Assembly: GCA_030526765.1 (NCBI GenBank)
Contig: JAUNCB010000034.1
Location: forward strand, 1-8,678
DNA from: Bacillota bacterium
Lineage (GTDB): Bacteria; Bacillota; Clostridia; Lachnospirales; Anaerotignaceae
Reading direction: 5' to 3'
Length of the DNA: 8,678 nucleotides
In this document: piece after piece, positions 63 through 1,533 of the stretch
Layout of the letters: each line of letters begins with the position of its first letter
How positions within the stretch are numbered: position 1 is the stretch's first letter
Notes under the pieces: model-generated
Told to the model about the DNA's origin: nothing
What the model saw: only the letters and a program-made list of their open reading frames with translations
Databases searched by the model: none
Position numbers and translations under genes: made by a program

Positions 63-128
63 ATGAAAAAGTACACCAGATACGGAAGCGGAGGGGATCC
101 ATCCTATCTCATCGTGGGACAGATGTAA
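63..128 (+). CDS. Possible 21-residue micro-ORF of unknown function
   Basis: An ATG at 63 lies 7 bases after a strong Shine-Dalgarno sequence (AAAGGAGG, about 48-55), and the frame ends at TAA 126-128. The product would have 21 residues: it starts MKKYTRY, has a Gly-rich middle (GSGGDPSY) and ends in a short hydrophobic stretch (LIVGQM). I do not recognise it. There is no signal peptide and no complete membrane segment. It contains three Tyr codons but no Phe or Trp clusters, and no terminator follows it closely, so it is unlikely to be the attenuator peptide. It sits between the upstream terminator and the operon promoter, so it may belong to a read-through transcript. The strong ribosome site is the main support; with so few codons, chance is a real alternative. 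Confidence 0.35.
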   Translation: MKKYTRYGSGGDPSYLIVGQM

Positions 129-225: not shown

Positions 226-257
226 TTTACATTCCTCTTTTGTTATGCTAGTATGAT
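226..257 (+). promoter_or_regulatory. Candidate sigma-A type promoter of the aromatic operon
   Basis: TTTACA at 226-231 (one mismatch to TTGACA) is followed 17 bases later by TAGTAT at 249-254. A TG dinucleotide at 246-247 gives an extended -10 (TGCTAGTAT). An overlapping TATGAT at 252-257 is a better -10 hexamer, but its spacing of 20 bases is poor. Transcription would start near 260-264, about 40 bases before the leader peptide. The surrounding DNA is AT-rich. No operator palindrome was seen. Confidence 0.55.
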
Positions 258-302
258 AAAAACCGAAAAAAGCAGGGAAATAAAAGAAAGAGGATGCAAA
301 TT

Positions 303-371
303 ATGAGACAGAATCATATTTTCGCAAACGAATATTTTTATTCCTACCGTGTTTTCAAAGATTCAAAGTGA
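303..371 (+). CDS. Phe/Tyr-rich leader peptide of the aromatic operon attenuator
   Basis: A 22-codon ORF starts at ATG 303 and stops at TGA 369-371. An AGAGG ribosome binding site (about 289-293) lies 9 bases upstream. Six of the 22 codons are aromatic: Phe7, Tyr11, Phe12, Tyr13, Tyr15 and Phe18, with the core YFYSY at codons 11-15. There is no Trp codon. This matches the end products of the operon, which holds pheA and tyrA but no trp genes. The stop codon lies one base before a segment (373-384) that can pair with the 5' arm of the terminator at 431-463, which is the spacing expected of ribosome-mediated attenuation. Shortage of charged tRNA-Phe or tRNA-Tyr would stall the ribosome on codons 11-18 and leave 373-384 free. 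Normal translation to the stop would cover it. The peptide itself probably has no function. The mechanism is inferred from the sequence; the ORF and its composition are seen directly. Confidence 0.87.
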   Translation: MRQNHIFANEYFYSYRVFKDSK

Positions 372-372
372 G

Positions 373-444
373 TTTTACTGTGAGAAAAGACGGCTTGTTT
401 TCGTGGTTTTTTCTTGGAAAAGGCATTAGGGCTTCGCAGTGAAA
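373..444 (+). promoter_or_regulatory. Candidate antiterminator hairpin
   Basis: Bases 373-384 (TTTTACTGTGAG) can pair with 433-444 (TTCGCAGTGAAA) in 12 consecutive pairs, three of them G-U. The adjoining 385-391 can pair with 406-412 and extend the structure inward. The distal strand is the 5' arm and part of the loop of the terminator at 431-463, so the two folds are mutually exclusive. The proximal strand begins one base after the leader peptide stop codon, so a terminating ribosome would mask it. I saw no convincing protective hairpin that would sequester 373-384 in the absence of translation; the best is a weak, interrupted pairing of 364-369 with 377-382. Confidence 0.7.
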
Positions 445-463
445 TTCGCTGCGAAGCTTTTTT
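431..463 (+). terminator. Intrinsic terminator (attenuator) upstream of aroF
   Basis: GCTTCGCAGTG at 431-441 pairs with CGCTGCGAAGC at 447-457: 11 pairs with one G-U, closing an AAATT loop. Six T residues follow directly (458-463). It is a textbook rho-independent terminator. It lies between the leader peptide and the first structural gene, in the same orientation, so it would stop transcription before aroF unless the competing antiterminator forms. An ATG at 439 lies inside this hairpin and is in frame with aroF. It has no ribosome binding site and is not a credible start. Confidence 0.9.
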
Positions 464-516: not shown

Positions 517-1533
517 ATGGTAGTTGTACTGAGACCGGATACAAAAGCGGAACAGATAGAAAACCTGAAGGCGTGGCTTTCCAGCATGGGCATTGTGACC
601 CATATCTCTCAGGGGGTAAATCATACCATCATTGGTCTGGTGGGGGATACCTCTGTGGTGGATATGGATCTGATCCGTGCGCTGGATATTGTGGAAAATG
701 TGCAGCGGATTCAGGAGCCTTTCAAAAATGCCAACAGAAAATTTCATCACGATGATCTGGTGGTGGATATTGCGGGCAAAAAGATTGGCGGCGGCAATTT
801 CCAGATCATTGCAGGCCCCTGCTCTGTGGAAAGCGAAGAACAGGTTTGCGAGATCGCACAGCGGGTAAAGGAAGCAGGGGCAGGGCTCCTGCGGGGCGGC
901 GCATTCAAGCCCAGAACCTCTCCCTATGCTTTTCAGGGGCTGAAGGGGGACGGTCTGAAGCTTCTGATGGAAGCAAAGGAAAAAACAGGACTTCCCATCG
1001 TATCGGAGATCATGAATGCGGTGCATATCCCCATGTTTGAGGAGGCAGTGGATCTGATTCAGGTTGGGGCAAGAAATATGCAGAATTTTGAACTGCTGAA
1101 GGAACTGGGAAAAATCAACAAACCCATTCTGCTGAAAAGAGGGCTGGCAAATACGATCGATGAAATGCTGATGAGTGCGGAATACATCATGGCAGGCGGC
1201 AATGAAAATGTGATTCTCTGCGAAAGAGGCATCCGCACCTTTGAAACCAGAACCAGAAATACACTGGATCTGAGTGCGATCCCTGTGCTGAAAAAACTGA
1301 CCCATCTTCCCATTGTGATCGATCCCAGCCATGCCATGGGCTATGCCCATCTGGTAAAGCCGATGGCAATGGCGGCAACGGTGGCAGGGGCAGACGGTCT
1401 GATGATCGAGGTGCATAATAATCCTTCCAAGGCACTGTGCGACGGGCCCCAGTCTCTGACACCCGATCAGTTTGATGAGGTGGCAAGACTGGTATTGGAG
1501 CTGCGTCCGCTGGCTTGCAGATACAATGACTGA
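517..1533 (+). CDS. aroF: 3-deoxy-7-phosphoheptulonate (DAHP) synthase, type I-beta with N-terminal regulatory domain
   Basis: This cytoplasmic enzyme joins phosphoenolpyruvate and erythrose 4-phosphate, the first step of the shikimate pathway. From ATG 517 it has 338 residues, the usual length for the thermotogal-type enzyme. This start is chosen because AGGAGGG lies 8 bases upstream and the product begins MVVVLRPDTK; the longer in-frame start at 439 lies inside the terminator. Residues 1 to about 70 form the ferredoxin-like regulatory domain, followed by the TIM barrel. Visible motifs are GPCSVES (100-106), GGAFKPRTSPYAFQG (127-141), LLKRG (205-209), CERGIRTFE (235-243) and IDPSHA (268-273). 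The metal ligands expected for the family are present at Cys102, His272, Glu298 and Asp309. His29 and Ser31 match the positions I recall as the tyrosine-binding residues of the Thermotoga maritima enzyme, so Tyr feedback inhibition is likely (inference). It is the first gene of the operon, directly controlled by the leader. Confidence 0.97.
   Translation: MVVVLRPDTKAEQIENLKAWLSSMGIVTHISQGVNHTIIGLVGDTSVVDMDLIRALDIVENVQRIQEPFKNANRKFHHDDLVVDIAGKKIGGGNFQIIAGPCSVESEEQVCEIAQRVKEAGAGLLRGGAFKPRTSPYAFQGLKGDGLKLLMEAKEKTGLPIVSEIMNAVHIPMFEEAVDLIQVGARNMQNFELLKELGKINKPILLKRGLANTIDEMLMSAEYIMAGGNENVILCERGIRTFETRTRNTLDLSAIPVLKKLTHLPIVIDPSHAMGYAHLVKPMAMAATVAGADGLMIEVHNNPSKALCDGPQSLTPDQFDEVARLVLELRPLACRYND

What the first reader, a model, noticed from the sequence alone, without database searches (positions are those of the whole stretch)
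303..463. Ribosome-mediated Phe/Tyr attenuator in a likely Clostridia aromatic operon
A 22-codon peptide with six Phe/Tyr codons and no Trp codons is followed at once by an antiterminator strand and then by a strong terminator ahead of aroF. The codon choice matches the operon's two end products. This layout is classical in Proteobacteria (pheA, trp), whereas T-boxes and TRAP are the better-known controls of aromatic genes in Firmicutes. I saw no T-box motif here. One leader sensing two amino acids, and controlling nearly the whole shikimate pathway plus both branches, is unusual.
Basis: partly seen in the sequence, partly recalled or inferred. Interest (0 to 1): 0.8.

Follow-up and report, generated by a model that had tools for sequence, protein, structure and literature searches.

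The report
Phe/Tyr leader-peptide attenuator of shikimate operon
Ahead of an eight-gene aromatic amino acid operon lies a 22-codon reading frame with six phenylalanine or tyrosine codons, followed by stretches that can pair in two mutually exclusive ways, and a ribosome that runs short of either amino acid there is predicted to let transcription into the operon continue; the same layout precedes the same first gene in many of the related Clostridia examined.

Summary
Confirmed. Window 303-371 encodes MRQNHIFANEYFYSYRVFKDSK (three Phe, three Tyr, no Trp) behind an SD-like and a promoter-like site. The strand over its stop codon (368-384) can make 17 unbroken pairs with 433-449, the 5' arm, loop and start of the 3' arm of a -20.8 kcal/mol terminator (430-458 plus U-tract). 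The operon is aroF-tyrA-aroB-aroA-aroC-pheA-aroQ-aminotransferase.

Comparative tests support ribosome-mediated attenuation. Of 80 aroF loci, 60 have an SD-led ORF with at least 6 Phe/Tyr in 12 codons, against 1.0% of shuffles; in a class-wide set, 52 of 85. In two sets (58 and 37 loci) the antiterminator strand fits its own terminator far better than other loci's (0 of 5000 permutations each). Leader/strand-2 pairing is likewise locus-specific; the control pairing is not. All 86 and 47 leaders of the two structural sets carry both Phe and Tyr codons. No T-box lies here.

So the mechanism is classical, and where the leader occurs dual Phe/Tyr codons are the rule. Phe/Tyr uORFs before shikimate genes are already in print. 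By-product: Rfam's trpB "riboswitch candidate" is preceded by WQxW leader peptides in 14 of 14 members above cut-off read here. Response to Phe/Tyr is untested.

The parts
226..254 (+). promoter-like site: TTTACA, 17-base spacer, TAGTAT with TG ahead of it
   Evidence: pattern scan, (9 of 12 matches; a consensus match, not proof)
289..294 (+). Shine-Dalgarno-like AGAGGA, 8 bases before the leader ATG
   Evidence: sequence; a purine run at this place in the 19-sequence alignment
303..371 (+). leader ORF MRQNHIFANEYFYSYRVFKDSK, control codons F7 Y11 F12 Y13 Y15 F18
368..384 (+). strand 2 (antiterminator 5' half), overlapping the leader stop codon
   Evidence: 17 standard pairs with 433-449; locus-swap tests
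382..415 (+). linker hairpin between strands 2 and 3 (also the part aligned to P1 of Rfam RF04312, below its cut-off)
   Evidence: folds
433..449 (+). strand 3: 5' arm, loop and start of the 3' arm of the terminator; can pair with strand 2 or within the terminator, not both
430..463 (+). intrinsic terminator hairpin (430-458, -20.8 kcal/mol) and U-tract (458-463)
517..1533 (+). aroF, DAHP synthase with ferredoxin-like N-terminal domain
   Evidence: PF00793, PF18152; TIGR01361
1548..2396 (+). tyrA, prephenate dehydrogenase
   Evidence: PF02153, PF20463
2409..3464 (+). aroB, 3-dehydroquinate synthase
   Evidence: PF01761, PF24621
3476..4744 (+). aroA, EPSP synthase
   Evidence: PF00275
4725..5813 (+). 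aroC, chorismate synthase
   Evidence: PF01264
5829..6968 (+). pheA, chorismate mutase-prephenate dehydratase
   Evidence: PF01817, PF00800
6981..7436 (+). aroQ, type II 3-dehydroquinase
   Evidence: PF01220
7433..8623 (+). class I/II aminotransferase (NF005305), likely the last transamination step
   Evidence: PF00155; NF005305

Best explanation
This is most likely a leader-peptide attenuator of the trp/pheA type: a 22-codon ORF with three Phe and three Tyr codons precedes a strand (368-384) that can pair with 433-449 only if the terminator does not form, and a ribosome stalled for want of charged tRNA-Phe or tRNA-Tyr would leave that strand free, so that the antiterminator likely forms and RNA polymerase reads on into aroF and the seven genes behind it. 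With both amino acids in supply the ribosome would reach the stop codon at 369-371, cover strand 2, free strand 3 for the terminator and end transcription near 463. Shown here: the ORF, its codons, the exclusive pairings as sequence, their locus-specific recurrence in relatives, and the operon content. Predicted only: the order of folding on the nascent RNA (RNA from 346 to 449 folds as antiterminator, -31.4 kcal/mol; from 382, as with a ribosome on the stop codon, it cannot). Untested: transcription, translation of the leader, and any response to Phe or Tyr.
For: Phe/Tyr leader ORFs upstream of 60 of 80 aroF homologues against 16 of 1600 shuffles and 0 of 80 reverse complements; 52 of 85 in the class-wide set (slightly looser ORF rule: 450 bases, up to 55 codons), with shuffles 6 of 860 and reverse complements 4 of 86. 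Both Phe and Tyr codons in 86 of 86 leaders of the first structural set and 47 of 47 of the second. Strand 2 with the locus's own terminator arm: -18.2 against -12.9 kcal/mol with other loci's arms (58 loci, 0 of 5000 permutations as good); repeated in 37 loci unlike the first set: -17.7 against -11.9 (0 of 5000). Leader strand with strand 2: -14.3 to -19.7 against -11.0 to -14.5, and -20.4 against -14.5 (0 of 5000 each). Control pairing, leader strand with terminator arm, which would share any effect of base composition: no signal (2031 and 1926 of 5000). In the nearest 19 sequences the Tyr and Phe codons vary mainly at the third base, and the indels before the Tyr-Phe-Tyr cluster are of three bases; one single-base gap, in L002, lies between Y15 and F18. 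Run end to terminator is 42-122 bases in 85 of 86 loci (L034 at 0) although the stop codon's distance varies from -18 to 85. The next gene found after aroF is tyrA in 63 of 85 leader-bearing loci. Ribosome-position model for the window: share of strand 3 held by upstream RNA 0.87-0.89 with the ribosome on any Phe/Tyr codon, 0.32 on the stop codon.
Against: No expression data. In the window's finished RNA the terminator fold (-43.6) beats the antiterminator fold (-35.0), so the switch must be kinetic. With no ribosome at all the model still predicts strand 3 held (0.886), so the classical shut-off in the absence of leader translation is not predicted for this copy; strand 1:2 pairing is clear across loci but weak here. 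Across 58 loci the stall value (mean of maxima 0.72) hardly exceeds swapped-terminator controls (0.64, 290 swaps), so that model is not discriminating by itself; only 27 of 58 loci pass a strict on/off rule in it. 16 of 80 loci of the first collection, 55 of 76 of the genus/order collection and 33 of 85 class-wide loci did not enter the leader sets; 2 of 9 genomes of the same genus lack the element. The close alignment is so conserved in both strands that it gives little covariation.
Confidence: 0.88

Rival explanations
1. The leader peptide is a nascent-chain arrest peptide that senses free Phe or Tyr (or another ligand) in the ribosome tunnel; the residues, not the codons' tRNA supply, cause the stall.
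For: The peptide is not random outside the control codons: FA(A/T) before the run recurs in distant loci, and another group shares FFFSWGYFYFSAGxFCC or close variants.
Against: Phe and Tyr replace each other and the run's length and order vary (YFYFY, YYYYF, YFYSY). Leader and strand-2 pairing is locus-specific, which can explain kept stretches without a peptide effect; by eye FA(A/T) lies in strand 1, but I did not test that stretch alone.
Confidence: 0.05
2. The switch is a ligand- or protein-binding RNA (as proposed for Rfam's trpB motif) and the ORF is incidental.
For: Window 381-468 matches RF04312 weakly (32.1 bits, cut-off 59).
Against: Below the family's cut-off; 2 of 58 family-level genomes match at E 0.001, none above the cut-off. 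The ORF and its codons recur where sequence and hairpins differ. RF04312 members themselves carry leader ORFs.
Confidence: 0.04
3. The ORF is a small protein gene or chance frame and the hairpin a plain terminator with constant read-through.
For: No expression data; many aroF homologues have no such leader.
Against: Chance is excluded by shuffles; the exclusive pairing is locus-specific in two sets.
Confidence: 0.03

Closest known systems
Ribosome-mediated attenuators of trp and pheA (Proteobacteria; recalled)
   Same: SD-led short ORF rich in codons for the end products, four-strand leader, terminator with U-tract, strand 2 next to the stop codon.
   Different: Two amino acids (Phe and Tyr) in one leader, most of the shikimate pathway behind it, Clostridia; the no-translation shut-off is not predicted for this copy.
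Two candidate uORFs before shikimate genes with F and Y (PMC6429828, Fig. 6b legend; five genomes incl. Clostridium novyi NT; passages read)
   Same: Short ORF with Phe and Tyr before shikimate genes; probably the same kind.
   Different: I could not see the figure or the supplement, so organism, sequence and extent are unknown to me.
uORFC-13-1 motif before aroF (PMC8632094; passages read)
   Same: uORF with Phe upstream of aroF and a terminator.
   Different: 24 sequences, Acholeplasma and environmental, at least one Phe; not compared here.
T-box leaders (RF00230)
   Same: Read charging of one tRNA and act on a terminator (recalled); two aroF homologues of the class-wide set have one and no leader by my rule (L248, L257).
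   Different: No T-box at this locus; the genome's 9 T-box matches lie on other contigs.
trpB motif RNA (RF04312; PMC11109978, passages read)
   Same: Hairpin then terminator; members read here carry leader ORFs.
   Different: Different strand order: the antiterminator is in the right shoulder of P1 there; the window scores below the cut-off.
Leader peptides replacing T-boxes in Firmicutes hisS (PMC2965389; passages read)
   Same: Leader peptide in Firmicutes where a T-box is common elsewhere.
   Different: Histidine, hisS, bacilli.

Membership tests
ribosome-mediated leader-peptide attenuator | short ORF with SD and start codon upstream of the operon | tested here: met
   303-371
ribosome-mediated leader-peptide attenuator | run of codons for the pathway's end products | tested here: met
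   six Phe/Tyr codons; operon has tyrA and pheA; recurs in relatives
ribosome-mediated leader-peptide attenuator | intrinsic terminator before the first gene | tested here: met
   (sequence pattern and fold)
ribosome-mediated leader-peptide attenuator | antiterminator that excludes the terminator, located at the end of the ORF | tested here: met
   17 pairs; swap tests
ribosome-mediated leader-peptide attenuator | leader strand 1 pairing with strand 2 (shut-off without translation) | tested here: inconclusive
   locus-specific across loci; for this copy the no-ribosome model predicts read-through (0.886)
ribosome-mediated leader-peptide attenuator | termination responds to charging of the tRNAs and to leader translation | not testable with these tools
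   needs expression data
T-box (RF00230) | match to the covariance model | tested here: not met
   no match up to E = 1
trpB motif (RF04312) | score at or above the gathering cut-off | tested here: not met
   32.1 of 59 bits
uORFC-13-1 | consensus of the published alignment | not tested
   alignment not held here; passage only

The most novel reading that the evidence does not exclude
Leader-peptide attenuation reading Phe and Tyr together is the standing control of the shikimate pathway across much of the class, traded for T-boxes in a few lines, and Rfam's orphan trpB 'strong riboswitch candidate' is not a riboswitch but the Trp arm of the same principle: a leader ending in WQxW directly before the motif, with Phe/Tyr leaders (LYFSYYR, FYFSYYR) on lower-scoring copies before aroE-like genes. 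Reading its strands, a five-segment switch would result: a ribosome stalled on the Trp codons leaves the end of the ORF free to pair with the left shoulder of P1, which frees the right shoulder as antiterminator.
Probability: 0.65. Interest if true: 0.68.

Novelty: new member of a known kind. Interest (0 to 1): 0.5.

Why it matters
T-boxes and TRAP are the textbook controls of aromatic amino acid genes in Firmicutes (recalled). If the prediction holds, a large part of the Clostridia, including gut species, controls the entry to all aromatic biosynthesis by ribosome stalling on a mixed Phe/Tyr leader. That gives a direct test of how one leader weighs two amino acids, and a natural series in which leader, T-box and no RNA control replace one another before the same gene. 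The side result would settle the nature of a published riboswitch candidate.

Tried and rejected
Trp auxotrophy as the reason for a leader without Trp codons: trpE (PF04715) has no match in 9 of 9 genomes of the genus (5 of the 9 are under 90% complete) and IGPS none in the own genome and G007, but F/Y-only leaders also occur in G021, G023 and G025, which have IGPS, so this does not explain it. Trp codons in leaders against presence of the Trp pathway: too few genera; dropped. Ribosome-position model as proof: not discriminating against swapped terminators. Membership in RF04312: below cut-off. Covariation in the close alignment: too conserved to count.

Rows dropped or left out before counts: L038, L128, L150 (ORFs of 5-6 Phe/Tyr judged spurious by eye); L021 and L054 (leader present, no terminator by my rule); L034 (terminator -3.8) from the 58-locus test; L183 (contig edge) and L239 (150 bases only) from the class-wide set; G694 (contig edge) and G620 (passed over) not fetched. 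Leaders seen only by the frame-free scan or outside the ORF rule are not counted: L074, L077, L111, L115, L116, L118; by eye L194, L198, L204, L210, L250, L254. That scan also gave aromatic runs in other stretches (e.g. L131, L133, L134) that I did not judge or follow. Five class-wide leaders (L187, L196, L234, L247, L251) had no strong terminator by my rule.

Full report
WHAT IS THERE. The window is a whole contig (G000:C114, 8678 bases) that starts with a leader region and carries one row of genes: aroF, tyrA, aroB, aroA, aroC, pheA (chorismate mutase-prephenate dehydratase), aroQ and a class I/II aminotransferase (Pfam; four of the eight also by NCBIfam). No ORF of the window was identified as aroE or aroK. 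Before aroF lie a promoter-like site (226-254), an SD-like AGAGGA (289-294), the ORF 303-371 (MRQNHIFANEYFYSYRVFKDSK; F7 Y11 F12 Y13 Y15 F18) and a terminator hairpin 430-458 with a U-tract. The strand 368-384, which contains the stop codon, can form 17 consecutive standard pairs (5 of them G-U) with 433-449; this uses the terminator's 5' arm, loop and the start of its 3' arm, so the two folds exclude each other.

IS IT MORE THAN CHANCE. I collected 80 aroF loci by protein similarity alone (the best 80 of 575). In the 340 bases upstream, 60 of 80 have an SD-led ORF with at least 6 Phe/Tyr in 12 codons; reverse complements 0 of 80; dinucleotide shuffles 16 of 1600. A frame check on 86 leaders gives 68.5% Phe/Tyr in frame against 20.1% and 16.6% in the other frames. 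A second collection comes from 292 genomes drawn evenly from the class, 220 of which have a match. From it I took one upstream stretch from each of 87 genomes, nearly in order of similarity from the top of the list, so this set leans to the nearer homologues; 85 were usable, 3 of them the same stretches as in the first collection (L175, L179, L185). 52 of 85 have at least 6 Phe/Tyr in 12 codons under a slightly looser ORF rule, with shuffles at 6 of 860 and reverse complements at 4 of 86. Of 76 loci from the genus and an order-wide sample (87 of 146 genomes with a match, many of them weak or partial), 21 entered the structural set. Of the 40 distant ones fetched as L120-L159 none has a leader that I accept, and no Rfam family reaches its cut-off in those 40 upstream stretches.

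THE RNA SWITCH. For each locus I took, without regard to complementarity, the leader's 5' part (strand 1), the stretch after the Phe/Tyr run (strand 2) and the 5' arm plus loop of the best terminator (strand 3). Among 58 non-redundant loci strand 2 pairs with its own strand 3 at -18.2 kcal/mol on average, and with other loci's at -12.9 (0 of 5000 permutations as good). Strand 1 with strand 2 gives -14.3, -16.6 and -19.7 for three cut-offs of strand 1, against -11.0, -12.5 and -14.5 (0 of 5000 each). Strand 1 with strand 3, which should not pair, shows nothing (2031 of 5000, there with 59 loci). In 37 further loci whose strands are unlike the first set's: 2:3 -17.7 against -11.9 (0 of 5000), 1:2 -20.4 against -14.5 (0 of 5000), 1:3 1926 of 5000. 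Examples of changed but kept pairing are L064, L046, L015 and L023. In the 19 nearest sequences both strands are nearly invariant, so they add little.

HOW IT WOULD WORK. With a ribosome on any of the Phe/Tyr codons the nascent RNA is predicted to fold as antiterminator (share of strand 3 held upstream 0.87-0.89); with a ribosome on the stop codon it mostly is not (0.32). RNA from 346 to 449 folds at -31.4 kcal/mol with the antiterminator; from 382 on, as a ribosome at the stop codon would leave it, the linker hairpin and then the terminator form. Against a simple reading: the finished RNA prefers the terminator (-43.6 against -35.0), so timing must decide; and without any ribosome the model still gives 0.886, unlike the classical trp leader (recalled). 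Over 58 loci the model's stall value is not clearly above that of swapped terminators (0.72 against 0.64), so I lean on the swap tests, not on this model.

TWO AMINO ACIDS IN ONE LEADER. All 86 leaders of the first structural set and 47 of 47 of the second have both Phe and Tyr codons; 13 and 10 also have a Trp codon. After aroF comes tyrA in 63 of 85 loci, aroB in 7, pheA in 6. So where the leader occurs the dual form is the rule. The genus has no trpE match (0 of 9 genomes), and IGPS has none in the own genome and G007, so here the operon likely serves Phe and Tyr and not Trp; but F/Y-only leaders also occur in G021, G023 and G025 (same family, leaders like those of the Anaerotignum loci L007-L009), which have IGPS, so the missing Trp codons have another reason.

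WHERE IT IS MISSING. In the genus 7 of 9 genomes have the element; in G006 and G008 aroF stands 92 and 96 bases behind another frame (in L088, by eye, a NAD synthetase), with no Phe/Tyr leader and no strong terminator. Of 71 loci outside the structural set, 26 have an open frame of 90 codons or more ending within 120 bases of aroF, against 3 of 85 inside it (a crude measure): the element goes with an operon head. Two class-wide loci without the leader have a T-box in aroF's orientation (L248, L257; 2 of 19 scanned), against none in a scan of 20 stretches, 19 of them with leaders. The own genome has 9 T-box matches, all on other contigs; the genes behind several look like aminoacyl-tRNA synthetases by eye.

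WHAT IS KNOWN. Passages read: PMC6429828 shows in Fig. 6b two uORFs before shikimate genes with F and Y, from five genomes that include Clostridium novyi; PMC8632094 describes uORFC-13-1 before aroF in Acholeplasma; PMC2965389 reports His leader peptides in bacilli; PMC1262725 saw no conserved RNA structures before Phe/Tyr operons in Actinobacteria; PMC11109978 describes the trpB motif. Searches gave listings only (no paper) and, apart from these, I saw no title on a Phe/Tyr attenuator of aroF in Clostridia; that is a statement about these searches in an open-access library, not about print at large. I therefore file it as a new member of a known kind.

SIDE RESULT. The window's weak match to RF04312 led me to that family. 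In one bacterial family (unnamed, f129) 27 of 29 genomes match it, at 34 places. I read 30 of the 34. All 14 above the cut-off have an SD-led ORF ending in W-Q-x-W plus two residues (L267: a longer tail), its stop codon 15-21 bases before the motif; of the 16 below the cut-off 10 have the same ending, 2 have LYFSYYR/FYFSYYR before a gene that looks like aroE (by eye), 2 have NWQRYYCMYGF, 2 have none. No shuffle control was run for this, and the loci are related to each other, so they are not 30 separate events. In 12 loci that I picked, my script found a complement of the terminator arm in or near the right shoulder of P1 in 9 (not in L262, L268, L281), and several folds pair the end of the ORF with the left shoulder of P1. 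The motif was published as a strong riboswitch candidate whose authors did not rule out a classic attenuator; a search for the motif's name with leader-peptide terms (10 of 111 listed) showed that name only in that paper.

Noticed in passing
L169, L260-L288 (RF04312 loci): Rfam's trpB 'strong riboswitch candidate' is preceded by a leader ORF ending in WQxW in 14 of 14 members above the cut-off and 10 of 16 below it (30 of 34 places read); two lower-scoring copies before an aroE-like gene have LYFSYYR/FYFSYYR instead.
   Followed up: partly
L248:149-415 (-), L257:338-603 (+): T-box leaders upstream of aroF in two class-wide loci that lack the Phe/Tyr leader: the same gene under a different tRNA-sensing RNA.
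   Followed up: no
L101, L103, L105, L107, L117, L111, L115, L116, L118: A second leader type with a shared peptide like FFFSWGYFYFSAGxFCC, including a Trp codon, before aroF in other families of the order.
   Followed up: partly
window 63-128 (+): SD-led 21-codon ORF MKKYTRYGSGGDPSYLIVGQM upstream of the promoter; no relative among the loci held at that time, apart from the window itself and a chance-level match.
   Followed up: partly
G000-G008: No match to the anthranilate synthase I N-terminal domain in 9 of 9 genomes of the genus: the genus likely cannot make Trp, though 5 of the 9 genomes are under 90% complete.
   Followed up: partly
L027, L030, L035, L073, L061: Phe/Tyr leaders before aroF in MAGs labelled Treponema, Pyramidobacter and Thermoguttaceae; gene transfer or wrong binning not separated.
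   Followed up: no
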